Shown here piece after piece: positions 30,658-44,789 of a stretch of DNA of 45,865 bases (position 1 is its first letter; each line of letters starts with the position of its first letter). The position numbers and the translations under genes are program-made. The notes under the pieces are model-generated. The model did not search any database. It was not told the origin of the DNA and saw only the letters and a program-made list of their open reading frames with translations. Location of the stretch: positions 1-45,865 of the forward strand of contig NZ_JADEXE010000015.1 in assembly GCF_015207265.1 (NCBI RefSeq). Reading direction: 5' to 3'. Origin of the DNA: Nodosilinea sp. LEGE 07298 (GTDB lineage Bacteria > Cyanobacteriota > Cyanobacteriia > Phormidesmidales > Phormidesmidaceae).

Positions 30658-33003
30658 TTAGCTGGATGATTCAGTTTTATCAGTGTTTGATTTTCGCTTT
30701 ATCACTGGTGTTAAAGCTTCCGGAATATTTTCTAATTCAATTGAGGCACATCCAATTTCAAAAGCTTCTTCAACCGTTCTTCCTGCACCAATCGCATCAT
30801 AAAAACCAATAGCAAACTCAATGGCTGCATGATCGCCAATTGCTTTATTCATACCAATCACATAATCAATATGTTGACTGATGCTTTCTGCCTGTACTTC
30901 TGAATAGCAGGCATTGAGTACAACACACTCAATTTCATCCTTAAAGATGGAAAATAATTTAGCCAGAGCGCTTGTATTAACTAAGTGTAACTTTCCTGAA
31001 TTATTCTCAAACGCTAGACCGTCTTCACCTCCACCGTGGCCGGAGAAGTGTACTATCTTGGGCTTGTGGTCTAGTAAAGCACGTCTTAAATCGCTAGGTC
31101 GAGATGCTAGTGAATAACTTATTTGAAAGCGATCTCGCTGCTTTGCTCGGTCTAAACCTGCCTGAATCTCTCGGGCTTCTTTCTCTAACCTGAGCCTGTC
31201 TGTATCGGTTGGATTTGCAGTCAAAATTAGAATTTTTTTGGGAGGCTCTTGGCCCAAATTATAGCTTGTCTCTACGTAAAATTTGTTATTTTCCATTGCT
31301 GACAAAACCATTTGCTCAAGTTTTTTGATGCGATCATCTTTTTCGGAAATTCCTGACAGCAAAGACTGTAGATCGTGATGAGGAAGAGATTGTATTTCTT
31401 GATACTGACTAAAATATTCTGTGCTTAACTCAGAACGATCAACAGTACCAATCACCTGAGCCTGTAGTCGAATTTTTTCGTTACCTCTTCCTTCTAGCGC
31501 AACTACTTGCAACTGAGCTTCTGGATGTGCTTCAGATAGATTTTTTAATGCGATTGCAGCTGCAGCTGGATCAATCCCATCATGATGGTAAAGATCAAGC
31601 GTCTTAAATGTGTGCGCTAGTGCACGGGGATCAACATTTTGCTGACGATAAAGCCCTAACGTATTGAGAATAGGAGCCATGAAATCAGAAAAATCGCCAT
31701 CCTTAAACACTTCCTGGCGATTGTCTGGCTTACGGCATGGATCCTTATCTTCTGGGGTAGGCATTCGCATGTATACAAAGTCGCATATGATACTGTCTAA
31801 TATCGTTTCAGTAGAAATTCCCCAATCTTGAATTGTAGTTCCTGTCAAGCAGGCTCCTTGGAGATTTGCTCGATACAGTTGAGCCTGAGCTAATATTGCT
31901 CCTGTTAAGTCAGCATTACTCAGATCAGTATCAGTAAGATCGGTTCCAATAAAGCTGGCATTTCTTAAGTCAGCATTAGATAAATTTAAGGTTCTCAAAC
32001 AAAGAAAACTATAATTTTGATCACGCCCTATTTTTGTGGTCGCTAGTTTCTGTATTGAGGGGCTGGAAAGATAAGTACCTTCCGTTCTAGCCTGATCAAT
32101 CTTTTGTGCTTCAAACCAATTTACCCGCCCTAATGAAGCTTCTCTAAAATCAGTGCTTTTGAGAAAAGTATTTTCAAAGTTGGCATTCCTTAAATTAGCT
32201 CCCTTAAAAGAAGTACCCTGTGTTGTACAGGCCAATGCAAGTGATCGGATCAGAGTATATCTTAAATCTCCCGATATTGCTTTTCTCGAAATTCTAGTAC
32301 TTAAGAAAAGGAGAGGAGTAAGAATAGCTATCGCAATTATCAGCGCGGTTAATATTTGAACTTGTGTAAAAGGCATTTCTGACAGTTGCTTTAACCCAAA
32401 ACCTATCCCCCATAGGCCACCTATCAATGTGGTCAATCCAAAATAAAACCTATTCAAGGTCTTAGATTCTACTACATTTAGATTTATTGAATGGCCAAGG
32501 GCAGATATTAAACAACCTGATATGGCACCTGCTATGGCTGTAGACTGAACAAAAGAAACTCCCAAGCCCGCAAATTCACCACTGATTAAGGTTATAAATG
32601 TTGTAATTATAGCTGTCACAACAACTACAAGCGGTGCAGTTTGAGTTAATCCTCGTAGATAAACTAAACCTGAAAAAAAAATTAAAATCCCTATGCTTAA
32701 AAAGCTTGATATCAGGTTATATTCTCGGCTACCACTAATATCTACTAATATGCTGCTAATACTAATACTTGCATAGCTTGTCATCATACTGGCTAAGCAC
32801 AGCAGCAAGAAAGCTAAAGTTACTAAGGCAATAGATACATAAGGTTGTAAACCAGCATGGGCACCGCTGAAATTGGCATTTTCGAGGATAGCTTCCGAGA
32901 AGTCTGCTCCTCTGATGTCAGACCCCCTAAAATCAAATCCGCTCAGATCTTGTCTTCTAAACCGCTGACCTTGAAGCTGCCGTCCCCGAAATTCTCCGGC
33001 CAT
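30658..33003 (-). CDS. CHAT-domain caspase-like protease with pentapeptide repeats and membrane helices
   Basis: This 781-residue protein is modular. Pentapeptide repeats (residues 1-50, 'DLSGFDFRGSDIRGADFSEA') come first, then six or so transmembrane segments (about 55-265). More pentapeptide repeats follow (about 285-420, 'LSNADLRNASFIGTDLTDTD'), then a helical linker. The C-terminal CHAT peptidase (about 590-765) has its catalytic His656 in 'VHFSGHGGGEDG' and Cys699 in 'VVLNACYSEVQAESIS'. CHAT proteases act as triggers in bacterial cell-death and defence systems. Membrane anchoring puts the protease at the cytoplasmic face. It starts 3 bases after the trypsin-like gene stop, so the two are co-translated. 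Confidence 0.88.
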   Translation of the reverse strand: MAGEFRGRQLQGQRFRRQDLSGFDFRGSDIRGADFSEAILENANFSGAHAGLQPYVSIALVTLAFLLLCLASMMTSYASISISSILVDISGSREYNLISSFLSIGILIFFSGLVYLRGLTQTAPLVVVVTAIITTFITLISGEFAGLGVSFVQSTAIAGAISGCLISALGHSINLNVVESKTLNRFYFGLTTLIGGLWGIGFGLKQLSEMPFTQVQILTALIIAIAILTPLLFLSTRISRKAISGDLRYTLIRSLALACTTQGTSFKGANLRNANFENTFLKSTDFREASLGRVNWFEAQKIDQARTEGTYLSSPSIQKLATTKIGRDQNYSFLCLRTLNLSNADLRNASFIGTDLTDTDLSNADLTGAILAQAQLYRANLQGACLTGTTIQDWGISTETILDSIICDFVYMRMPTPEDKDPCRKPDNRQEVFKDGDFSDFMAPILNTLGLYRQQNVDPRALAHTFKTLDLYHHDGIDPAAAAIALKNLSEAHPEAQLQVVALEGRGNEKIRLQAQVIGTVDRSELSTEYFSQYQEIQSLPHHDLQSLLSGISEKDDRIKKLEQMVLSAMENNKFYVETSYNLGQEPPKKILILTANPTDTDRLRLEKEAREIQAGLDRAKQRDRFQISYSLASRPSDLRRALLDHKPKIVHFSGHGGGEDGLAFENNSGKLHLVNTSALAKLFSIFKDEIECVVLNACYSEVQAESISQHIDYVIGMNKAIGDHAAIEFAIGFYDAIGAGRTVEEAFEIGCASIELENIPEALTPVIKRKSNTDKTESSS

Positions 33004-33006
33004 GCT

Positions 33007-34440
33007 CTATTCCTCTGTTAAAGCATTTCGAATCGTTAAATTAAAACGACCTTCACTTGAGATATTGTCAGAAATTACTCTGACTTGATAACGGCCATCG
33101 GCAGGAAGATTGAGAGTTATTATTGAATTCAAATCTCCAAAGTAATTTCCACGATTTTCTTGAATAATTTGCCCTGATGAGCCTCTTAATTGAAGAGCTG
33201 TTTTCAATTCTTCACTAACTGCTAAAATTGTAACTCTCTGGCCAGCTTCACCTAAAAACTCGTAATCTTTATACAGGTTTCCAGGACTTAGAAAAGAGGC
33301 TTCCTCTTCTTCAAAGAACAACCCTTCTTCTCGTAGCTCTAAAATTGGCTCTACAAAGAGTCGGAGGCGATAGTCACCTGTTGTAAGACTTAGGAGCGAA
33401 GTGGCAAATATACAGTAAATTCCGCTGCTAGGAATTGTAACTTCACTAATTCTCAAATCATTTTTTAAGTCATTATTTTCATTTACACCGATCACTTCTC
33501 CACCCTCTGTCTCTAGTGTCAAATATGGATAGAATTTCCTATCTTCAGTTGTCATCTCAATCGTGATGATCTGCTGAGCTTGTGCTTGAAAATGATAACT
33601 ATTGAAGTAGCTCCCATCTTCTGAAAGATCACTAGAATCTAATCGACCCTCAATTTCTATATCACTTACTTCTATTTCTTGAGATTGTGGACTACAAATG
33701 CTGGTGAGCTGTAGTGGTCGATTGGGAGCATTCCCCGTAATCACGTAAGTTTCTACAAAATCTCTAACTAAGTCAACGCTGATGGCGTTTCCCGATCCAC
33801 TTATTATATTTTTGCTTTTTATGATTCCAATGAGTTTCCAATCCTCATTAAACAATGCGCTTCCAGAATGGCCTGGATTCACATCAATGGAAGAATCGAA
33901 CTCAATTTTGTGCCTCTTTTCTATCAAGTTTTTAATCGTACCACTTACGGTTGGGCCAGGCAAAGTACCATCACGACTATCAAAAAAGAAAATAGAATCA
34001 TTTTCTAATATTGCTTCGCTAGCATCATCTAGAACTGATGCCAAACCGGTAACACCTTGAATTTCTACTGCAGCCAAATCATAGCTGGAATTTGGATGAA
34101 AGGCTATGACTTTTGCAGAACTAAAGGATCGTCCATCGTGCAGTTCAACATTTACTTCTGGATAAACACCGACAACATGTGCATTAGTAACGATTAATCC
34201 ATCTGAGTTTACCAGAAACCCATTACCCAATAATTTTCCATCAGGTGTTTTGATAGAAACTATAGAATTGACAACGTTTTCAGGAGGTACGTTTTCAATA
34301 TCTTGAATTATCATTTCTGAATCATAATTTTGTTTCGGAAAGAAGAGATGAAATGAGTGTTTTAGCAGCGGCAATCCAAAAGATTCACTTATCATAAGTA
34401 AACTAAAAAAGGCAAAAGAAAGATGAAATATTAAATTCAT
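33007..34440 (-). CDS. Exported trypsin-like serine protease with two C-terminal beta domains
   Basis: The 477-residue protein begins with a hydrophobic export signal (about residues 3-22). The trypsin/DegP-like domain has the triad His88 ('VTNAHVVG'), Asp121 ('NSSYDLAAVEI') and Ser192 ('NPGHSGSALF'). Two pre-peptidase C-terminal (PPC)-like modules follow, at about residues 255-365 and 375-477, each ending in patterns such as 'SGIYCIFATS' or 'DGRYQVRVIS'. No PDZ domain is present. It lies between the HEAT protein and CHAT protease genes in one array. A periplasmic or lumenal protease next to a membrane CHAT protease suggests signalling across the membrane, which is inferred. Confidence 0.88.
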   Translation of the reverse strand: MNLIFHLSFAFFSLLMISESFGLPLLKHSFHLFFPKQNYDSEMIIQDIENVPPENVVNSIVSIKTPDGKLLGNGFLVNSDGLIVTNAHVVGVYPEVNVELHDGRSFSSAKVIAFHPNSSYDLAAVEIQGVTGLASVLDDASEAILENDSIFFFDSRDGTLPGPTVSGTIKNLIEKRHKIEFDSSIDVNPGHSGSALFNEDWKLIGIIKSKNIISGSGNAISVDLVRDFVETYVITGNAPNRPLQLTSICSPQSQEIEVSDIEIEGRLDSSDLSEDGSYFNSYHFQAQAQQIITIEMTTEDRKFYPYLTLETEGGEVIGVNENNDLKNDLRISEVTIPSSGIYCIFATSLLSLTTGDYRLRLFVEPILELREEGLFFEEEEASFLSPGNLYKDYEFLGEAGQRVTILAVSEELKTALQLRGSSGQIIQENRGNYFGDLNSIITLNLPADGRYQVRVISDNISSEGRFNLTIRNALTEE

Positions 34441-34472
34441 TATTGCTGCCTAAATAAGTGTGAACAAGAGTA

Positions 34473-36341
34473 TTAAGCACACCTGAAAAAGCTCCTTATT
34501 CCTCTGATGCCACAAACAACTCTAGATCGTTGGCTTGTATATGTGCTAACAGCTATAACTGACTCCCTTGAGCCAGCAACATCTTCATCCTTAAGTAACT
34601 CCAGAAGAAATGCGAACAGGTCAGAATTGAGTGTGCAAAGCTTATATAATTCTGTATCTACAATGTTTAATGTCTCCTCTGGTGGTAATGAACAGGATTG
34701 TTCTAAATTAAAGTTAGTATTGCTTAAGTCTTCTAGCGCTGCAAAAGATGCAAATCCTAGTCTATATTCAGGATTTCGCCTAAGCTCTCCTATGTCAGCA
34801 CTTGCTGTGCTGATAGTGCTCCATCGCTGATAAAGCGCACTCTTTTTTAACTCATTCAAAATAATTTCAGCGTAAAGCGCATTGGAAAGATTTGAAAATT
34901 CGGGAAGAACACCATAAGCGCGGATAGCACCTGCTCTGAGGAAAGCATCATCTTCAGCAGTGATAAGAGAGAGCCAATTCAGTTTGTAGCCTCGATTCAC
35001 TAACTCTTCTAGCAACTGAGTGGCAAGATCTTCTTGATATCTTAAAGAGCGAGCATTCAATTCTTCTAACGGACTCTTTGCAAAAAGTCGAAGAATGCCT
35101 GGAAGAATTATTTGATCAGGCAATGACAACCATTCTGAAGATTCTGCATCTAATAATAGCTTTTCTTTTAGAATACTAGTTGAAAGAGCAACTTCTGTGT
35201 CATAATTTATGACCTCATTCTCTGGAGAACCTACTGAGATTTCAAAAAGTGCAGGTAAAGCGTTTGAGGCTAAGTTATTTAGAATGTAGCTAGCACTACT
35301 TCGAATATTTTCATCTTCACTCGCTACTTCTGCCATAATTATACGCAAGTGAGGAGCCTGGTATAGTTTTGATTCTGCTAATGCATCACCTGCTGCAGCT
35401 CTTACCTCAATTGCATTCGTCTCATCCTGAAAAACCTCTATCAAGGTAGGAATAGCATCCTCTGTGGCAATTTCCCCTAGGGCAACTATTGCAATTACCT
35501 TTGTAAATAAATCTATCTCTGTAGTTGCCAAGTCTGTAGAAACCAGTTCCAGTAACATTGGGACTATGTTGTTTAAAACCAGAGGTTGCTCTGCTTTAAG
35601 TATTCTTATAGTATTTACAAAACTAGTTCGTCTTACGTTAAGACGATTGGCTCCTAAATCCTGATTTGTTAGCATTGATTTAAGGCTTTCTGTAGCTGCT
35701 GTTTTTAATTCAGGATTCTCTAAATGTCTTATTAACACACTTATCGTTTGAGAAGAAGCTAGTGCAGCTAACTGATAACCAGTCCAATTGCGGGTAGATG
35801 TACTGAATGTTGAATTTTCATAAATTCGGATATATTCAAACGGCTGGACAGCCACTAGTAGTTCAGGATCTTGAGCTTTCAATCCAGTTAAAGCTACATT
35901 TTCAATATCAGAGATAGCTAGCAGAGTAAGTAGTGCTTGGACAGTTTCTACTGACTTTATTTGGGCTAACACTCCAATTACACGGTGACGTTCTGACAGT
36001 AGAATTTCAGAATCCTGAGCCATCTTAGTCAAGACAGGAATCGCAAGTTCGCTATACTCGCTTACGCAATTAAGCCTTCGATAAATGAGGCGTCCATTCC
36101 TTGTCCACTGAGTGTAATCTTCATACTCTTCAGAAAAAGGAATGGGACAATTCTGGTTAGACTCAAGCTGGGAAACTAAATTATGAGCAATATCTTTCGA
36201 GATTAAGTCAGCTAGGCTTGTAGTATTTTGTTTTAGCTGATGCAAGCTAGCACTAGCAGAAGTTGCCATCCCAATGCTGTAGGCATTGACAAGACAAAGC
36301 AAGGTTATAAGTTTGTTGTATTTCCTGTGATAAAGACGCAT
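34473..36341 (-). CDS. Exported HEAT-repeat protein
   Basis: The 622-residue protein has a basic start, 'RLYHRKYNKLITLLCLVNAY', and a likely signal peptide ending near 'ATSASAS' (residue 31). Much of the rest is HEAT-like helical repeats, for instance 'VIAIVALGEIATEDAIPTLI' followed by 'VRAAAGDALAESKLY', and 'RVIGVLAQIKSVETVQALLT'. Such solenoids bind proteins. Cysteines at the start of the mature part and at the C-terminus could form disulfides after export. The gene lies 32 bp upstream of the trypsin-like gene. It may be a scaffold, inhibitor or sensor for the protease; no catalytic motif is visible. Confidence 0.75.
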   Translation of the reverse strand: MRLYHRKYNKLITLLCLVNAYSIGMATSASASLHQLKQNTTSLADLISKDIAHNLVSQLESNQNCPIPFSEEYEDYTQWTRNGRLIYRRLNCVSEYSELAIPVLTKMAQDSEILLSERHRVIGVLAQIKSVETVQALLTLLAISDIENVALTGLKAQDPELLVAVQPFEYIRIYENSTFSTSTRNWTGYQLAALASSQTISVLIRHLENPELKTAATESLKSMLTNQDLGANRLNVRRTSFVNTIRILKAEQPLVLNNIVPMLLELVSTDLATTEIDLFTKVIAIVALGEIATEDAIPTLIEVFQDETNAIEVRAAAGDALAESKLYQAPHLRIIMAEVASEDENIRSSASYILNNLASNALPALFEISVGSPENEVINYDTEVALSTSILKEKLLLDAESSEWLSLPDQIILPGILRLFAKSPLEELNARSLRYQEDLATQLLEELVNRGYKLNWLSLITAEDDAFLRAGAIRAYGVLPEFSNLSNALYAEIILNELKKSALYQRWSTISTASADIGELRRNPEYRLGFASFAALEDLSNTNFNLEQSCSLPPEETLNIVDTELYKLCTLNSDLFAFLLELLKDEDVAGSRESVIAVSTYTSQRSRVVCGIRGIRSFFRCA

Positions 36342-36684: not shown

Positions 36685-39273
36685 TTAGCCCTCAACTTCC
36701 ACTGCGCCCAACGCCCTCAGAACCCCAACCTGGGCAGCGGTCAACCCCGTAACTCCAATAATATTCATCTCTTCGTAGGGGCGGTTACTTCTTAACACCC
36801 TTAAACACTCTCCCGTTTCAGTATTCCAGATTCTAATCGTGCCATCTTCACTACAACTCGCCAGCGCCTGCCCATCATCGCCAAACGCAACCGACCACAC
36901 AATCTGGCTGTGGCCCTCTAAAATCTGCAAGCAATCCCCAGTCGCCGCATCCCACAACTTAATAGCATAGTCTTCGCCTCCACTCGCCACCCAGCGCCCA
37001 TCCGGGCTAAACGCCACCGCCCGAATGCGCCCCCCGTGGGCCGGTTGAGACCACAGGCATTGGCCCGTCGCCACATCCCAAAGCTTCAGCATCCGATCGC
37101 CGCTGCCGCTGGCCAAAAACCGACCACAGGGGCTAAACCCCAGAGAAAGCACCCAATCTTGATGCCCCTCCAGCGTAGCGAGACAAGCCCCCGTTTCCAC
37201 GCTCCAGAGCTGAATGGCGTGATCATCCCCCCCACTGGCCATCATCCCACCTTGGGGGCTAACAGCTACCGCCTTAACTCGACCTTCGTGGCCTTGCAAC
37301 GTCTGCAAACACTGCCCAGTCGCCACATCCCACAACTTAATCGTCTTATCGTGACTACCACTCAGCACCTGCTGCCCACTGGGGCTAACGCATACCGATT
37401 GCACCCAATCCGTATGCCCCATCAACACCTGGCGACAGTCCCCTATCTGGGCATCCCACAAGCGCACCGTACAGTCATCGCTGCCGCTGGCCAGCCAGGT
37501 ACCGTCCGGGCTAAAGGCAACGCTAGAAATTAGATTGGTGTGGCCTGCCAAGGTGCGATCGCACCTGCCCGTCTCCAAATTCCACAGCCGCACCATCTGG
37601 TCTTCGCCTCCGGAGGCCACCAGCGGCGCAATCGGGCTAGCCGCGATCGCCACAATCCAATCGCTGTGGGCCTTGATGGTTTTCAAGCAGTCTCCCGTGC
37701 GGGTATCCCATAGCTTGAGAGTTTGATCGTCACTGGCGCTGACCAGAGTATAGCCATCGGGGCTAAACTCCACCAGCCACACTCGGGCCGAGTGGCTCTC
37801 TAGCGTCTTCAGGCACTGGTTCGTTTGGGTACTCCAAAGACGCACCGTATTGTCTTCTCCAGCAGTGGCCAGCAGCTCACCATCGGGGCTGTAGTCCACC
37901 GCCCAAACCTTGATTGCATAGTCGGGCAGCGTGCCTAGGCGATCGCCCGTTTCCACATCCCAACGCTCAACAACCGTGGTACTTTGGCTGGCTGCAATTT
38001 CCTGGCCCCTTGGGTGCAGGGCTAACCCCAGAGCCCAACCGACATCAATTGCCAGCGATCGCAGACAATCCCCCGATTGCAGATCCCAAAGCTTAACGGT
38101 GCGATCGTCCCCACTGCTGATTAACATCAGCTGGTTGGGATGAAACTTCAACGAGAGCACCCGGTTAGTGTGCCCCGACAAAGTTTGCCTACAGTCCCCC
38201 GTTTGGGCATCCCAAAGCCGAATCTCGGCCTCATTGCCAGCGCTAGCGATGGTTCCCCCATCGGGGCTAAAATCCACCGTCTGCACCCAACTGCTGTGCC
38301 CCGGCAATGTGCGCAAGCAGGCTCCAGAGTTCACCTCCCACAGCCGCACCGTCTGGTCATGGCTACCACTGGCCAATGTTTGACCGTCGGGGCTAAAGCA
38401 CAGCGCTGTGACCCAGGCCGTATGCCCCTTAAAGCTCAGCACCTGGCGACCATCGGCTACATGGATTAGCAAAATGGATTGATCGACCCCCACCGCCAGA
38501 TATGCCCCATCTGGGCTGAAGGTGGCCGACAGAATGCAGCCTAGAACTTGGGTGAAAACTGACTTTGTCAGGTCTGCATAGGCAAAGCTGACCTCGTGGA
38601 GCGCCATGCCCTGCAAATATACCTGCCACACCGCCAGATGAGAAAAGTCGTAGCCTTTCAGGTCAATCCCCATCTGCCACAGCAGATTGAGCAGGTTTCC
38701 GGCGGCATAGCCTGGCTTATCTCTCAGCGTGGCCTTTAGCTGAGCCAAGAACTGGCTGAAGTGGGCCTGGGCAAAGTTGCGGCTGCCAAAGGTCTCCAGC
38801 AGCTTGGTCGCCAGCGGCTTCAGCAGCAGGCGAATTTGGGCCTCTCGCAGGTAGTCTTTGGCCTGGGCATTAATCAAAAACTGATGGTTGAGTAGGTCAA
38901 CCTCAAGAGCGCAAATCTCTTGATAAATCTGGTCAATCACATGATTAACCACATACTCCATCACCACCGGCTGTTGCGAAAACCTCACCTGATGGTCGTC
39001 GAGGGGTAAGCTGGTGGACTTTTCAATCAGCGATCGCCGCTCTAACGACAGCAACACCTCCAGAAGTTCCACCTGAGACGTAGATGGCATTAGCTCTTCC
39101 CGAATTTCCTGCGGCAGCACCCACTCGCGATGCACCGCCACCCACTCCATCACCCGCTGCTCCAGGGGCGACAACCGGCTAAATTGTTGATCAATTAGAT
39201 TGGCGACATCGCCGAAAACGGTGGTGCCGCAGGCTAAAAACTGCTGAATGCTGGCATTGAACAGCTCCTGCAC
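36685..39273 (-). CDS. STAND NTPase, C-terminal part: winged-helix region and 14 WD40 repeats
   Basis: The 862-residue frame begins inside the STAND gene, after the frameshift at 39308-39313. Its first 240 residues contain 'FSRLSPLEQRVMEWVAVHRE', the winged-helix region of NB-ARC proteins, and a helical bundle. About 14 WD40 repeats follow, many with 'SPDG' turns and 'KLWD' ends, enough for two seven-bladed propellers. Several blades are near-identical, for example 'LWDVATGQCLQTLQGH'. The propellers are the sensor part of STAND switches. No independent start or ribosome site is evident, so this is half of one gene, not a separate one. Confidence 0.85.
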   Translation of the reverse strand: MQELFNASIQQFLACGTTVFGDVANLIDQQFSRLSPLEQRVMEWVAVHREWVLPQEIREELMPSTSQVELLEVLLSLERRSLIEKSTSLPLDDHQVRFSQQPVVMEYVVNHVIDQIYQEICALEVDLLNHQFLINAQAKDYLREAQIRLLLKPLATKLLETFGSRNFAQAHFSQFLAQLKATLRDKPGYAAGNLLNLLWQMGIDLKGYDFSHLAVWQVYLQGMALHEVSFAYADLTKSVFTQVLGCILSATFSPDGAYLAVGVDQSILLIHVADGRQVLSFKGHTAWVTALCFSPDGQTLASGSHDQTVRLWEVNSGACLRTLPGHSSWVQTVDFSPDGGTIASAGNEAEIRLWDAQTGDCRQTLSGHTNRVLSLKFHPNQLMLISSGDDRTVKLWDLQSGDCLRSLAIDVGWALGLALHPRGQEIAASQSTTVVERWDVETGDRLGTLPDYAIKVWAVDYSPDGELLATAGEDNTVRLWSTQTNQCLKTLESHSARVWLVEFSPDGYTLVSASDDQTLKLWDTRTGDCLKTIKAHSDWIVAIAASPIAPLVASGGEDQMVRLWNLETGRCDRTLAGHTNLISSVAFSPDGTWLASGSDDCTVRLWDAQIGDCRQVLMGHTDWVQSVCVSPSGQQVLSGSHDKTIKLWDVATGQCLQTLQGHEGRVKAVAVSPQGGMMASGGDDHAIQLWSVETGACLATLEGHQDWVLSLGFSPCGRFLASGSGDRMLKLWDVATGQCLWSQPAHGGRIRAVAFSPDGRWVASGGEDYAIKLWDAATGDCLQILEGHSQIVWSVAFGDDGQALASCSEDGTIRIWNTETGECLRVLRSNRPYEEMNIIGVTGLTAAQVGVLRALGAVEVEG

Positions 39274-40405
39274 CGTCGTCGAGACAATGCGTAAGGCCAG
39301 GGGATTGCCCCCCGTACTGCTCCACTAATGCCTGGGCTTCCTGCGCCGATGGGGTGAGCCCTCTCGCCGTCAAAAGCTGCTGGCCTGGTTGATAGCTCAG
39401 CCCTTGTAGACGGAGCGATCGCAGCCCGCTACCTTCTCTAGAAAATAGCCCCAGGGGTTGCTCTCGGCTGGTAAACACCAGACAGCTCTGGTGACGGCTC
39501 TCGGCAACACAGCGCAGAATCTGGCCGTAGGCCTCATAGCCAGAGCGATACGCCCCGGTGCCATCCTGCCCCTGAAGCACAGACTCAACGTTATCGAGAA
39601 CGATCAGACGGCGGGCGGTTTGCAGACACCCAATCAGCTGCAACAGTTGGCTATCCCAGGTGTCTGCCAAGGGGACGTCCTGACGGGGGGACAGAAATCG
39701 GATCGAGTCAGCCAGCAGCGGGTCAGCCGGGGGTGCGTTGCGGAGCGATCGCCACATCACAGCCTCAAACTCACCGCTCAGCTGCTCAGCCAGCTTCACC
39801 GCCAGGGTCGTTTTGCCCACGCCCCCCATGCCCAGCACCCCCACCAGGCGGCAGTTGTCCCTCAAAATCCATTCCTTCAGCACCGTCAGCTCATCATCTC
39901 GCCCGTAAATCAGAGGAATTTCTGGAGCATCCCCCCAGTCCTGCCGGGCTACAGATGCTTCTGAGATTTGAGACGGCAGCGGCGGCGAGGTTTGGGTGGC
40001 CTGGTGAGATTTGAGCGGGCGGAGGCGTTCCCATTCTGCTTCGAGCTTGGCTAGATTGGCCGCCACATCCTGCCGTCGATGCCACAGCTTGAGGGTAAAG
40101 TGCCAGTCCTCGGAACCCTGGGTGGCAGGACGATTATCCTCCAAAATGCCAAGAAAATCTTGCAGCCGCTTCAAGACTTCGCGAATCTGCTCAGGGGTGA
40201 GCTGGCCATCGTAAGTATCTTGCGCTGTTAAGTAAACCAGATAACGTACTTTAGTTCTGACAACCAATTGCCTATCGGTTTGCCAGTTTACCTGTAGCCG
40301 CACAACATCAGGCTCGTCCCAATCTTGGTTAGCGTAGGCCAAAAGTGCTGCCAGTAGGCGTTTCGTGCGCTGCTTTACCTGGGGTCCGTAGTTTGGTCTT
40401 GCCAT
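39191..40405 (-). CDS. STAND NTPase, N-terminal part: effector-associated region and NB-ARC domain, frameshifted
   Basis: The first 130 residues ('RPNYGPQVKQRTKRLLAALL' onward) are a conserved cyanobacterial N-terminal region of unknown role. The NB-ARC NTPase follows, with Walker A 'VLGMGGVGKTTLA' near residues 190-202, Walker B 'RRLIVLDNVESVL' and the sensor 'LVFTSREQPLG'. At six G residues (C6 at 39308-39313 on the plus strand) the frame goes wrong and ends in about 40 unrelated residues. With five G it would read 'EQYGGNPLALRIVSTTVQEL' and continue into the WD40 frame as one protein of about 1240 residues. As written, the switch protein is broken; a base-call error is possible. Confidence 0.82.
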   Translation of the reverse strand: MARPNYGPQVKQRTKRLLAALLAYANQDWDEPDVVRLQVNWQTDRQLVVRTKVRYLVYLTAQDTYDGQLTPEQIREVLKRLQDFLGILEDNRPATQGSEDWHFTLKLWHRRQDVAANLAKLEAEWERLRPLKSHQATQTSPPLPSQISEASVARQDWGDAPEIPLIYGRDDELTVLKEWILRDNCRLVGVLGMGGVGKTTLAVKLAEQLSGEFEAVMWRSLRNAPPADPLLADSIRFLSPRQDVPLADTWDSQLLQLIGCLQTARRLIVLDNVESVLQGQDGTGAYRSGYEAYGQILRCVAESRHQSCLVFTSREQPLGLFSREGSGLRSLRLQGLSYQPGQQLLTARGLTPSAQEAQALVEQYGGQSPGLTHCLDDGAGAVQCQHSAVFSLRHHRFRRCRQSN

Positions 40406-40588: not shown

Positions 40589-41410
40589 ATGATTGACCTC
40601 GGTTCCTATCTTCGCTGTTTTACTCAACGATCAAATACTCACATCTCTCACTTACCACTGATTGGTTGGGATCAGGATTGGAGCATAGCAGCAGGGCAAG
40701 GAATCCGCATTGGCGTCTTGGATACTGGCTTTGCCGCCGATCACCCGGATTTAGCCGGTGCTGACGTTGTCAGTCAGAATTTCACTGGCTCAAAACCGAG
40801 CCAAACACTACCTACCGGGCATGGTACAGCATCTGTCTCTTTGCTCGTGGGCCAGGGCAAGTCTCTTATTCGAGGAATTGTTCCACAGGCCCTTCTATTT
40901 GCAGCTCAGGTAGTGGGAAAGGACGGATACGCCAAACCAGAGGCTGTCGCCAGGGCAATTACCTGGTTAATCGCTTCCGGGGTGCACATCATTGCCATTC
41001 CCTTAGGGAATGGCATCGGGTATCCAGAAATCACCTCAGCAATAGTTGAGGGCAATCAGCAGGGAGTATTTTTTCTTGCATCTGTAGGCAACGATTTTCC
41101 AAAGCCAACGATGTTCCCAGCATGCCTACCCCAAGTGGTTGCTGTAGGAGCTTCAGATTCGCAAGGAAATCTTCTTCCAAGCTGTTGTAGGTTACCCAAA
41201 CTTGATTTGGTCGTACCAACCGTTAATCTTTTTGTTCCCGATCAAAAAAGTGTCTTTCAGCTATTCAGTGGGTCTTCAGCTGCTTGTGTTTTAGCCGCTG
41301 GAGTTGCTGCGCTAGCTCTCTCGCACCGATCAAATCAGGACAAAACAGCTCTTCTGAAATCCCTCTTGCACAAACCATCAACTTTAAACATTGGAGAATT
41401 CCATGTCTGA
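40589..41410 (+). CDS. Subtilisin-like serine protease (S8), compact
   Basis: The 273-residue protein is a minimal subtilase. The triad is visible: Asp45 in 'IGVLDTGF', His78 in 'TGHGTASVSLL' and the Ser in 'FSGSSAACVLAAGVAALAL' near residue 231, with an oxyanion Asn in 'ASVGND'. There is no signal peptide and no pro-domain, so it probably acts inside the cell. A GGGAAA site precedes the ATG. Its end overlaps the start of the beta-trefoil gene by 8 bases, so the two products are made together. The pair is divergent from the STAND operon. Confidence 0.88.
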   Translation: MIDLGSYLRCFTQRSNTHISHLPLIGWDQDWSIAAGQGIRIGVLDTGFAADHPDLAGADVVSQNFTGSKPSQTLPTGHGTASVSLLVGQGKSLIRGIVPQALLFAAQVVGKDGYAKPEAVARAITWLIASGVHIIAIPLGNGIGYPEITSAIVEGNQQGVFFLASVGNDFPKPTMFPACLPQVVAVGASDSQGNLLPSCCRLPKLDLVVPTVNLFVPDQKSVFQLFSGSSAACVLAAGVAALALSHRSNQDKTALLKSLLHKPSTLNIGEFHV

Positions 41411-43445
41411 AATTATTGCTTCGGAAATGACTGAGACAACTAATCCTAAACTCAAAGCATTAGCAGATCGTGTGACAAACACTCTGCGGCTAAGCCTTGA
41501 AAAGGCAATCGCCCATCAGGCCGATCCGACTAATTATCCGCTATCTGCAGACCCCAACTCATTTGAACAGGCAAGCTTATCCTACTTCAATGCCTATTTT
41601 GAATCTCGTTTGCAACAGATATCTGCCAAACTAGGCCCTCAGAAAGCTTCAGAGGTTCAACCTCTACTAACTGCTCAGCGCAAGGAGGTGACAACTAAAG
41701 TGATGACCAGTCTCAAAGCTCCTCAAAAGGAGCGAGCTGTAATGTATGGAGATTTAGCACAGGTGAATCTCCAGCTAGATAGTACGGTCATTCAGCAGGT
41801 ACAAGCCATTCGTATACCATCAACAATCAAGCTTTCCCAACAGGATTTGCTCTTGATTAATCCATCTATTCCCGGAGTTCAAAGAATTTCGGGAATGGAT
41901 GGCTCAGGCCTAACGCCTCAAAGTACACTCAACACTTTAGAACTTCGGGTTCGCAAGTTGAAATGCCTAGATAAAACTGATGTCAAAAACTTCTTGGGAA
42001 TTCCCCTGGAATTGGATCCTGACGCGATTGCTCTCTCCGCCATTGCGACTGACCCCACGGGCCAGGTCTGGAATATTGCTGAGACCCCTATGGGAAGAAA
42101 TTTTGACAACGGACGTACGGAGACCTACTCTCCATCAAAATCAATTGCCCGATTCGCTCTTGACCGAGGCACAACTTGGCCACGAACCTATCGAGCATCA
42201 TTAACTATCGCGGAGAAGGACGATGGTGGGGGGTTAACTGTTTTTTCAGATCGAATCTTCACGGAGGCTTCTAGACTAGTAGCTGATGCCCTTGACGATG
42301 AAGTTGGGGAAACTTGGGCTGAAGCAATTGCACGAGTAATTGTTCAGGTTTGTAAAGAGTTATGGAAGTGGATTATTGAGGCATTAGGTCTAAACGATGA
42401 TGTCTATCCTCCCCAACTAGTACAAATCAATATTCCTTCCTTTGGTGCTCGATTCAGCGGAGCAGTAACCAGTCCTGAGAGAAAGATTGTTTATAGAGCC
42501 CATGGTGGAGTCTACGAACTCTATTATGAATGGCATCTCTCTAACGCCACCCCCATGTCTCCAGCATCCTCTGGCCCCAGAACTGGAACAGGCTCTGGCA
42601 CCGGGGTCATTTCGGCTTCATTGGTAGCCAGTCAACCCAGTGAAGGAGTGCCGCTAAGGCTGTATTGGAGTCGGCAACGTGGTGATAACTTCAGCACAGC
42701 GACTCTAAAGGGCCGTCAAGATGCAGAGGCCGCTGGATACAGTCTTATTCGAACTGAAGGATACGTCTTACCTGAATCGCAGCGCAATACAGTGCCTCTA
42801 AATTTGTACTGGAACTCGGCTCGGTTAGATAACTTTGTCGGTGCAAGCCAGCAAAGCAAGCAAGAGATAGAAGCTAATGGGTACGGGTTTGTTCGCACTG
42901 AGGGCTACATTTTCTCTGCGCAGCAGCCAGGGACAGTGCCACTAAAGCTCTACTACGGAGCCACTAGGGGAGACTACTTCACTACAGCTACTGAGCAGGG
43001 CCAACAGGATGCACGAGGAGCCGGATACCGCTTGGTTCGTACAGAGGGATATATTTTCCCAAAAGCCATTGCTCTTCGCGCACATAATGGGATGTATGTC
43101 TGTGCAGAGGCAGGAGGCGGACGCGAACTAGTTGTGAATAGAACCTGGATAGGTGAATGGGAACCCTTTCTAATCATCTGGCTAGGCGGCAATCAGGTCG
43201 CTCTGCGAGCCTACAACGGCCAATATTTGTATCCAGAGGATGGGGGTACCCGAAGAGTAGTTGCGAAAGCGACTCAAATTGACCCTCGTACTATCTTTGA
43301 GATGGTTCATGTTGGTGGTAGTAAACTAGCCTTCAAAGCCCATAACGGCATGTACCTTTGTGCCGAAAATGGCGGAGGGCAGGAAGTAGTTGCTAATAGA
43401 CCCAGGATTGACATTTGGGAAACTTTTGAAATCTTTGGGGCATAA
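41403..43445 (+). CDS. Multidomain protein with DUF5648-like repeats and a fascin-like beta-trefoil
   Basis: The start is the ATG at 41403 with GGAG just upstream; 680 residues. Residues 1-350 are unfamiliar: a helical start, then beta-rich segments and a helical hairpin 'EAIARVIVQVCKELWKWIIE'. A Gly/Ser/Thr linker near residue 390 leads to three DUF5648-like repeats, each near 45 residues with 'VPLRLYW' at the start and 'RTEGYV' at the end. The C-terminus is three fascin-like units beginning 'IALRAHNGMYVCAEAGGG', which make a beta-trefoil. Such trefoils and repeats bind sugars or surfaces. It may be the substrate or targeting partner of the co-encoded subtilase. No export signal is seen. Confidence 0.75.
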   Translation: MSEIIASEMTETTNPKLKALADRVTNTLRLSLEKAIAHQADPTNYPLSADPNSFEQASLSYFNAYFESRLQQISAKLGPQKASEVQPLLTAQRKEVTTKVMTSLKAPQKERAVMYGDLAQVNLQLDSTVIQQVQAIRIPSTIKLSQQDLLLINPSIPGVQRISGMDGSGLTPQSTLNTLELRVRKLKCLDKTDVKNFLGIPLELDPDAIALSAIATDPTGQVWNIAETPMGRNFDNGRTETYSPSKSIARFALDRGTTWPRTYRASLTIAEKDDGGGLTVFSDRIFTEASRLVADALDDEVGETWAEAIARVIVQVCKELWKWIIEALGLNDDVYPPQLVQINIPSFGARFSGAVTSPERKIVYRAHGGVYELYYEWHLSNATPMSPASSGPRTGTGSGTGVISASLVASQPSEGVPLRLYWSRQRGDNFSTATLKGRQDAEAAGYSLIRTEGYVLPESQRNTVPLNLYWNSARLDNFVGASQQSKQEIEANGYGFVRTEGYIFSAQQPGTVPLKLYYGATRGDYFTTATEQGQQDARGAGYRLVRTEGYIFPKAIALRAHNGMYVCAEAGGGRELVVNRTWIGEWEPFLIIWLGGNQVALRAYNGQYLYPEDGGTRRVVAKATQIDPRTIFEMVHVGGSKLAFKAHNGMYLCAENGGGQEVVANRPRIDIWETFEIFGA

Positions 43446-43703: not shown

Positions 43704-44789
43704 CGCCAATTCAAATCTGAAGTGCATCGGTGCCTAATTTGTCTGGATAGAATACTTCAAATGGCGTTTTGTAGTCAAGCGATTTTCTCGGCCTTTTGTT
43801 AATCAACGTGACTGCTTTTTCTAATGCCTCTGGCTTCACAATTTTGAAATTTGTTTGTTTTGGGAAAAACTGTCTTAACAATCCATTCGTATGCTCATTG
43901 AGTCCTCACTCCCAGGAGTGATAAGGATTGGCAAAATAACACAATAGTCCTAGCTCTTTGCTCAGCTCTGCGTGTCTGCTAAACTCTTTTCCATTGTCAA
44001 ATGTCATCGTTTTTAGTTGTGTCTCTGGAATCTGAGCGAAAAGTTCAATCGTCACCTTATTAATTTCAAAAGACGTTTTATTCTTACCTAGACCAGCTAC
44101 TAAAAACTTCGATGACTTGTCCACGTGGGTCACAATCACGCCGTGATGATTTCCTCCAATCATCGTGTCACTTTCCCAATGACCTATCTCAGTCTTTGCG
44201 TCAGCTATCGAAGGCCGATGTTCTATCCCTATACGCCCTAGAATCTTCCCTCGCTTTGAGTTACAGCCCCCTCGCCTACGTCGTTTGCCTCGCCCCTGCC
44301 GTAAATACTTCTGGTAGCTCTTCAAGCCTTCATGGTCAGCATAGATCATCTGATAGATGGTTTCATGACTGATCTGTGCTCGTCCTTCTCGCTTCAGTCG
44401 CCCAGCAATTTGCTCAGGACTGTGGTACTGCTTTAAGCGCTGTTTGATTTCGAAAACACAAATCTCCGATACACAACTAAACGCTGTCTTTGATTGCTGT
44501 CGTCGAACCTGCATCTTCTGCTGGGCGCTGTCGGGTAAGTAATACCCTTCTTCGTTTCTGTTACGGGCTAGCTCTCGCGATACTGTGCTCTGATCTCGTC
44601 CGAGTTGCCGGGCAATGGCACGCATGGACAACGCTGTCGTAGTTCTCAATTCGTAAACTTGATTTCGTTCAGAAGCGCTAAGCTGGGTATAGCTCATAGG
44701 GTGTCTTTTTGTTGTGGTAAACATCAGACTATCCTATGAGTCCCTCTGCGGGAAGCTTCTAGGCGTTGCACTTCATTCTAGAATCGGCG
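43704..44789 (-). mobile_element. IS30-family insertion sequence with CAT target duplication
   Basis: The left end, read outward from the other strand, is TGCACTTCAGATTTGAATTGGCG split over 43704-43726; the right end at 44767-44789 has TGCACTTCA and GAATCGGCG in the same places. CAT flanks both sides (43701-43703 and 44790-44792). This 3-bp duplication and the 1086-bp length fit IS30. The element holds one transposase gene, interrupted by a stop codon. Confidence 0.82.
43711..44697 (-). pseudogene. IS30-family transposase with an in-frame stop after the catalytic Glu
   Basis: I take the ATG at 44697 (MSYTQLSASER). The N-terminal HTH, 'LSMRAIARQLGRDQSTVSRE', is followed by the DDE domain, with Asp in 'HWESDTMIGG', Asp in 'TMTFDNGKEFSRH' and Glu in 'YHSWE'. 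A TGA (43906-43908) comes right after that Glu, where the family has Arg in 'WERG'; CGA to TGA is a single transition. The same frame then goes on with 'GLNEHTNGLLRQFFPK' to the normal end at 43711. The product would lack its last 65 residues, so the element is probably inactive. Confidence 0.8.

What the first reader, a model, noticed from the sequence alone, without database searches (positions are those of the whole stretch)
40589..43445. Overlapping subtilase and trefoil/DUF5648 protein pair, divergent from the STAND operon
The genes overlap by 8 bases. The subtilase is minimal, with no signal or pro-domain; the partner has an unknown N-terminal half, three DUF5648-like repeats and a fascin-type trefoil. 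This suggests a protease and its cut-activated, surface-binding effector.
Basis: partly seen in the sequence, partly recalled or inferred. Interest (0 to 1): 0.62.

Follow-up and report, generated by a model that had tools for sequence, protein, structure and literature searches.

The report
Mini-protease paired with C2-hairpin protein
Two overlapping cyanobacterial genes encode a stripped-down subtilisin protease and a protein that looks built to grip membranes and sugars; the pair has stayed together in distant bacteria, probably as a protease-triggered membrane-attacking device of a protein family not described before.

Summary
An intact, minimal S8 subtilase (273 aa, no prodomain or signal) overlaps by 8 bases a 680-aa partner that ends in one DUF5648 domain (three repeats) and a CBM92-like trefoil. 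The 'unknown' N-terminal half is a helical domain, a disordered linker, and a C2-fold domain (AlphaFold2 plus structure search) with a two-helix hairpin inserted in the presumed third Ca2+-binding loop. Acidic loop residues (D190, D207, E271, D273, D332) are nearly invariant across 28 relatives. In many relatives the hairpin is hydrophobic and glycine-zipper-like; in the window copy it is only amphipathic. The pairing is not accidental: 12 loci (cyanobacteria, Gammaproteobacteria, Burkholderiales, Bacteroidota, an acidobacterial MAG) place a mini-subtilase beside this C2 protein, in both gene orders, and in two genome samples (291 and 274 genomes) every mini-subtilase had the partner beside it. 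Many C2 relatives lack the subtilase. Best reading: the subtilase cuts its partner to release or activate a membrane-inserting, glycan-targeted effector, functionally like fungal HET-Q1/HET-Q2 or bacterial gasdermin-protease pairs but with an unrelated effector fold. Cleavage, toxicity and Ca2+ binding are untested.

The parts
40589..41410 (+). Minimal S8 subtilase, 273 aa; catalytic D45 (40721-40723), H78 (40820-40822), oxyanion N168 (41090-41092), S230 (41276-41278)
   Evidence: PF00082 4.9e-27; subtilisin alignment; D/H/S conserved in 12 of 12 mini-subtilases and N in 11 of 12
41403..41410 (+). 8-base overlap of the two reading frames (ATGTCTGA)
   Evidence: direct sequence
41403..43445 (+). 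Partner protein, 680 aa, no signal peptide seen
41436..41852 (+). N-terminal helical domain of the partner (residues 12-150), absent from the shortest relatives L026 and L027
   Evidence: AF2 model, pLDDT mostly 85-98; alignment A4
41853..41933 (+). Linker (residues 151-177, pLDDT under 50 at 154-173): candidate cleavage region 1
41934..42542 (+). C2-fold core (residues 178-380), eight strands, type II-like order
   Evidence: leading fold hits are C2 domains: best Z 9.1, and 9.4 for the relative L009
42231..42383 (+). Two-helix hairpin (residues 277-327) inserted between E271/D273 and D332, i.e. in the presumed Ca2+-binding loop 3
   Evidence: AF2/DSSP; Gly-zipper Pfam matches in up to 7 of 16 relatives but not in this copy; hydropathy table
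42543..42665 (+). Ser/Gly/Thr-rich linker between C2 core and lectin-like half: candidate cleavage region 2
   Evidence: direct sequence; pLDDT about 40 at 389-399
42666..43052 (+). DUF5648 domain (three repeats), likely glycan-binding
   Evidence: PF18885 6.9e-7; PMC12853789
43062..43430 (+). CBM92-like beta-trefoil; WExF sugar-site motif kept in subdomains 1 (WEPF) and 3 (WETF), lost in 2
   Evidence: 7zoh_A 7e-15; PMC11039641

Best explanation
A dedicated two-gene protease-effector module. The mini-subtilase is a cytoplasmic-type, substrate-dedicated protease whose substrate is the neighbouring C2-hairpin protein. Cleavage, probably in a disordered linker before or after the C2 domain, frees the C2-hairpin unit. 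The acidic loops then bind Ca2+ and anionic membrane, and the inserted helical hairpin penetrates or disrupts the bilayer. In the window copy a DUF5648 + CBM92-like half would hold the product on a glycan-bearing surface. Shown here: sequence anatomy, predicted C2+hairpin fold, near-invariant acidic loops, recurrent adjacency. Inferred: that the subtilase cuts the partner, that cutting activates rather than matures or inactivates it, Ca2+ dependence, and membrane damage.
For: Pair recurs in 12 loci with both gene orders. In 291 cyanobacterial-class genomes mini-subtilases are confined to the genomes with the partner (the fourth match, G400, looks like an ordinary subtilisin); in 274 gammaproteobacterial genomes only G585 and G965 have one, both beside the partner, and all weaker matches sit in long ORFs. 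Clades {L016,L013,L014 in the protease tree}, {L056,L057} and {L009,L010,L011} recur, and the distance matrices are correlated (Mantel r 0.53, p 0.003 for 12; r 0.43, p 0.05 for 10 non-redundant pairs). Catalytic triad intact in 12 of 12. C2 fold. C188/D190/T192/D207/E271/D273/D332 nearly invariant in 28 proteins. Hairpin hydrophobic, with glycine-zipper Pfam matches in up to 7 of 16. Disordered linkers. Glycan-type C-terminal modules. Other C2-hairpin genes sit beside TPR-CHAT genes (L026) or between STAND-like ATPases (L037). Precedents: HET-Q2 subtilase activates HET-Q1 (PMC10989679); QhpE, a cytoplasmic subtilisin, cuts its operon partner (PMC7876137).
Against: No cleavage, toxicity, Ca2+ or membrane data. 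More than half of the C2-hairpin relatives have no adjacent mini-subtilase, so the protein can work without it. The window copy's hairpin is among the least membrane-like (5% Gly, charge -5, GRAVY 0.37), so it may no longer insert. Neither protein has an evident Sec signal, so a glycan-targeting role needs lysis or non-classical export. Most hairpins of the subtilase-paired clade are amphipathic (best 19-residue hydropathy about 1.4-1.6) rather than clearly transmembrane.
Confidence: 0.45

Rival explanations
1. Maturation pair: the subtilase trims an N-terminal leader or linker so that the C2-hairpin protein can be exported or folded, as QhpE does for QhpC; the product is a surface adhesin or Ca2+-dependent membrane/glycan binder and not a toxin.
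For: QhpE is a cytoplasmic subtilisin that processes its operon partner once (PMC7876137) and the mini-subtilase scores 67.8 bits against the QhpE model; both genes lack evident Sec signals; the window copy carries two glycan-binding-type modules and a hairpin without glycine zipper.
Against: QhpE score far below the cut-off (165); no radical-SAM, ABC exporter or QhpC-like gene recognised beside it; many relatives carry bacteriocin/glycine-zipper-like hydrophobic hairpins, unusual for an adhesin.
Confidence: 0.25
2. Inhibitor/chaperone pair: the partner's helical domain replaces the missing prodomain and keeps the subtilase folded or silent until membrane damage or Ca2+ influx releases the protease, which is the real effector.
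For: The protease has no prodomain and was always found with the partner, whereas the partner may lack the protease; C2 domains respond to Ca2+ entry in eukaryotes (general knowledge).
Against: The partner's N-terminal domain is helical in the model, unlike the alpha/beta I9 prodomain (general knowledge); relatives without any subtilase keep that domain (e.g. L018, L021, L023, L024).
Confidence: 0.12
3. Conserved neighbours with no direct biochemical relation (a mobile cassette that happens to carry both genes).
For: Patchy distribution (about 1% or less of sampled genomes), not found in 11 same-genus genomes, IS30-type transposase gene next door.
Against: Adjacency kept across phyla despite gene-order reversal, and correlated gene trees; no mini-subtilase without partner in the samples.
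Confidence: 0.1

Closest known systems
Podospora HET-Q1 (gasdermin-like) / HET-Q2 (S8 subtilase), and fungal gasdermin-protease two-gene clusters (about 60% S8, 17% CHAT)
   Same: Subtilase genetically tied to a membrane-acting effector that it is thought to cut; S8 and, once, TPR-CHAT genes sit beside the effector family.
   Different: Effector here has a C2 fold with an inserted hairpin, not a gasdermin fold; HET-Q1 and HET-Q2 are idiomorphs at one locus; cleavage here is unproven.
Bacterial gasdermin-protease operons
   Same: Two-gene logic of protease + soluble membrane effector.
   Different: No gasdermin similarity seen (no Pfam match in the core, C2-dominated structure hits); no short C-terminal inhibitory peptide identified.
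QhpE (S8, QHNDH biogenesis)
   Same: Cytoplasmic subtilisin encoded beside its substrate.
   Different: Score below cut-off (67.8 against 165 bits); no qhp genes recognised nearby; substrate unrelated.
Type VII secretion mycosin, PatA/PatG cyanobactin protease
   Same: S8 catalytic domain with 98 and 50 bits of similarity.
   Different: Far below cut-offs (278 and 421); no ESX or cyanobactin genes recognised nearby.
C2 domains of cPLA2, perforin, dysferlin
   Same: Fold, and placement of acidic residues in the loops corresponding to Ca2+-binding loops 1 and 3.
   Different: A 50-75-residue helical hairpin is inserted in loop 3; sequence identity of structural matches about 10%.
BSAP pore-forming toxins with DUF5648 C-terminal domains
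   Same: Putative membrane-attack protein carrying a DUF5648 C-terminus.
   Different: BSAPs are MACPF-type (general knowledge) and secreted; here the effector domain is C2-hairpin, and a CBM92-like trefoil is added.

Membership tests
Peptidase S8 (subtilase) | Catalytic Asp/His/Ser with oxyanion Asn in order D-H-N-S | tested here: met
   D45/H78/N168/S230; Pfam 4.9e-27
Peptidase S8 (subtilase) | Proteolytic activity | not testable with these tools
   needs biochemistry
QhpE / mycosin / PatA subfamilies | Reaches the curated NCBIfam score | tested here: not met
   67.8 against 165; 98.5 against 278.75; 49.8 against 421.05 bits
C2 domain | Eight-stranded C2 beta-sandwich | tested here: met
   two AF2 models; top rows are almost all C2 domains, Z up to 9.1 and 9.4, rmsd 3-4 over about 120 residues; predicted models only, Foldseek E-values weak
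C2 domain | Recognisable by sequence profile (PF00168) | tested here: not met
   no C2 match among the 25 families listed for 16 members at E up to 5
C2 domain (Ca2+-binding type) | Ca2+-dependent lipid binding | not testable with these tools
   acidic loop residues nearly invariant but coordination not modelled
Gasdermin | Gasdermin fold | tested here: inconclusive
   no gasdermin among the Foldseek/VIA rows for two models; absence from a list does not exclude it
Protease-activated effector pair | Stable genetic linkage of protease and effector | tested here: met
   12 loci, two gene orders; mini-subtilase never found without partner in the two samples
Protease-activated effector pair | Cleavage of the effector by the protease | not testable with these tools
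   needs in vitro cleavage
CBM92 | Trefoil with WExF motif per subdomain | tested here: met
   7zoh 7e-15; WExF in 2 of 3 subdomains; CBM92 members lacking Trp in one or more sites are known (PMC11039641)
DUF5648 | Pfam gathering score | tested here: met
   30 against 25 bits

The most novel reading that the evidence does not exclude
A previously undescribed bacterial family of membrane-attack proteins, a C2 domain whose third Ca2+-binding loop carries an insertable helical hairpin, is switched on by dedicated proteases: mini-subtilases in one large clade, in several loci followed by a second, larger subtilase that could form a proteolytic cascade, and other partners such as CHAT elsewhere. 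This would be a gasdermin-like cell-killing or defence device built from unrelated parts and possibly gated by Ca2+ entry.
Probability: 0.3. Interest if true: 0.85.

Novelty: new variant of a known kind. Interest (0 to 1): 0.62.

Why it matters
If the reading is right, protease-triggered membrane attack in bacteria is not limited to gasdermins: the same two-gene logic would exist with a C2-based, possibly Ca2+-gated effector that no Pfam, NCBIfam or PADLOC model was found to cover, and with lectin-like add-ons that could aim it at glycan surfaces. It gives a concrete, easily tested protein pair and a defined family of about 28 members with which to test it.

Tried and rejected
Viral and phage origin: no relative in viral contigs or phages. 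Plasmid-borne pair: only one partner relative, on a Streptomyces plasmid without subtilase. Known defence model for the partner: none in PADLOC. Sequence-only profile search of the core against solved structures gave only chance-like matches of the hairpin to designed helical repeats. A papain-like protease beside L027 was suspected by eye but had no Pfam match, so it is not used as evidence. A cleavage site could not be chosen computationally. Large-subtilase cascade: seen in L056, L057, L009, L010, but the window locus lacks it, so it is kept only for the novel case. Gasdermins did not appear in the structure search lists. Literature searches for a C2 + subtilase bacterial system found nothing relevant; many journals are not held.

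Full report
OBSERVATION. The two genes are present as described. The subtilase ORF is 40589-41410 (+) and the partner starts at ATG 41403 and ends at 43445, so the frames overlap by eight bases, ATGTCTGA. Both starts follow purine-rich ribosome-binding-like sequences. The subtilase is a 273-residue S8 catalytic domain (PF00082, 4.9e-27) with D45, H78, oxyanion N168 and S230 in place by alignment to subtilisin BPN', with no prodomain match and no evident signal. The partner has DUF5648 (residues 422-550) and a fascin/DUF7910-type trefoil (about 554-676).

WHAT THE C-TERMINAL HALF IS. [quoted passage not shown] The trefoil is closest to 7zoh/7zoi (7e-15), domains of GH18 proteins; CBM92 domains bind beta-1,6-glucans through a WExF site in each subdomain (PMC11039641). 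The window trefoil keeps WEPF and WETF in subdomains 1 and 3. This half therefore looks like a surface/glycan binder, but it is not part of the conserved pair: relatives end after the core or carry other extensions (L022, L058).

WHAT THE N-TERMINAL HALF IS. Whole-genome searches found a second copy in the same genome and one each in two other cyanobacteria; an alignment-based scan of genome contigs gave 22 loci (L009 is the same locus as L004). An AlphaFold2 model of residues 1-399 (mean pLDDT 83.8) shows a helical domain (12-150), a disordered linker (154-173) and an eight-stranded beta-sandwich (178-380) with a helical hairpin (277-327) between strands 5 and 6. Foldseek and VIA-align put C2 domains at the top (cPLA2, CEP120, dysferlin; best Z 9.1; Foldseek E-values were weak, best 8e-3). 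A second model, of the Myxacorys relative L009 (mean pLDDT 72.3), again gave C2 domains (cPLA2 Z 9.4). Nearly invariant residues in 28 relatives are C188, D190, T192, D207, E271, D273, G276 and D332: these flank the loops that, in C2 domains with this strand order, are Ca2+-binding loops 1 and 3 (assignment of loop numbers is from general knowledge; metal coordination was not modelled). The hairpin sits inside loop 3. It matches glycine-zipper Pfam families in up to 7 of 16 relatives and is strongly hydrophobic in many, but in the window copy it is amphipathic with few glycines.

THE PAIR IS CONSERVED. Mini-subtilases sit next to the C2-hairpin gene in the window, the second copy of the same genome (L056), G027 (L057), Myxacorys (L009), two Okeania (L010, L011), an acidobacterial MAG (L012), two Zooshikella (L013, L014), Leeuwenhoekiella (L016), a Burkholderiales MAG (L017) and a gammaproteobacterium (L058). 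Gene order is subtilase-first in the window, L013, L014, L017 and L058, and partner-first in the others, so linkage survived rearrangement. The triad is intact in all twelve. In a sample of 291 genomes of the window's class, matches at E <= 1e-40 occurred only in the three partner-bearing genomes plus G400, whose match (E 1.9e-44, against 1e-124 for the others) looks like an ordinary subtilisin and has no partner in its genome. In 274 gammaproteobacteria the two strong, stand-alone matches (G585, G965) are exactly beside the partner; the weaker ones lie in ORFs of 477-758 residues. The distances in the two gene trees are correlated (Mantel p 0.003, or 0.05 without near-duplicates); the short window core is placed differently in the two trees. 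The mini-subtilase thus appears dependent on the partner, whereas the partner also occurs without it.

CONTEXT IN RELATIVES. In L056, L057, L009 and L010 a third gene follows: a 711-775-residue protein with a long N-terminal region, an S8 domain and a C-terminal HhH motif. In Methylobacter L007 a 301-residue protein without Pfam match takes the place of the mini-subtilase before the large one. Relatives without subtilase include one flanked by two TPR-CHAT genes (L026) and one lying between two AAA/TPR genes on a Streptomyces plasmid (L037). In the window the divergent neighbour is an EAD4-NB-ARC/WD40 STAND locus, with Trypsin_2 and CHAT-pentapeptide genes further along. These associations resemble those reported for gasdermin clusters but are few and were not tested statistically.

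MECHANISM. The best-supported statement is that the subtilase acts on the partner; the most likely sense is activation of a membrane-inserting C2-hairpin by linker cleavage. Precedents are HET-Q2 cutting HET-Q1 (PMC10989679) and QhpE cutting QhpC (PMC7876137). I put about 0.7 on 'the protease cuts the partner' and 0.45 on the full activation-and-membrane-attack reading. Rivals are maturation for export, an inhibitor/chaperone relation, and mere linkage.

MEMBERSHIP AND NOVELTY. The protease is an S8 peptidase but fails the QhpE, mycosin and PatA cut-offs. The core is a C2 domain by predicted fold, not by sequence profile. It is not filed as a gasdermin. No Pfam, NCBIfam or PADLOC model was found for the window core, and no paper describing the pair was found in the held library. 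I rate it a new variant of the protease-effector kind, with a plausible path to more.

Noticed in passing
window 36685-40405 (-): EAD4-NB-ARC ORF (39191-40405) and WD40 ORF (36685-39273) overlap and look like one STAND gene split by a frameshift near 39270-39310; real pseudogene or sequencing error not resolved.
   Followed up: partly
window 30658-36341 (-): Same-strand neighbours downstream of the STAND genes: CHAT-pentapeptide protein, Trypsin_2 + PPC protein, HEAT-repeat protein: a locus with several protease-type genes.
   Followed up: partly
window 43906-44724 (-): IS30-type transposase gene, apparently truncated, just downstream of the pair.
   Followed up: no
L056 2941-5076, L057 8813-11095, L009 7781-10105, L010 8290-10440: Large subtilase (711-775 aa) with a long N-terminal region and C-terminal HhH motif as third gene of the cluster; possible second tier of a protease cascade.
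   Followed up: partly
L007 6902-7807: A 301-aa protein without Pfam match replaces the mini-subtilase in Methylobacter; by eye it resembles the N-terminal region of the large subtilase without its protease domain.
   Followed up: no
L026 2781-5837 and 6811-9732 (-): Two TPR-CHAT genes flank a C2-hairpin protein that lacks the N-terminal helical domain.
   Followed up: partly
L037 2752-8963: Streptomyces plasmid: C2-hairpin gene between two AAA/TPR STAND-like genes, overlapping the downstream one by one base.
   Followed up: partly
L058 3726-4508 (-): Mini-subtilase with DYT instead of DTG/DSG after the catalytic Asp and HGL instead of HGT: possibly altered activity.
   Followed up: no
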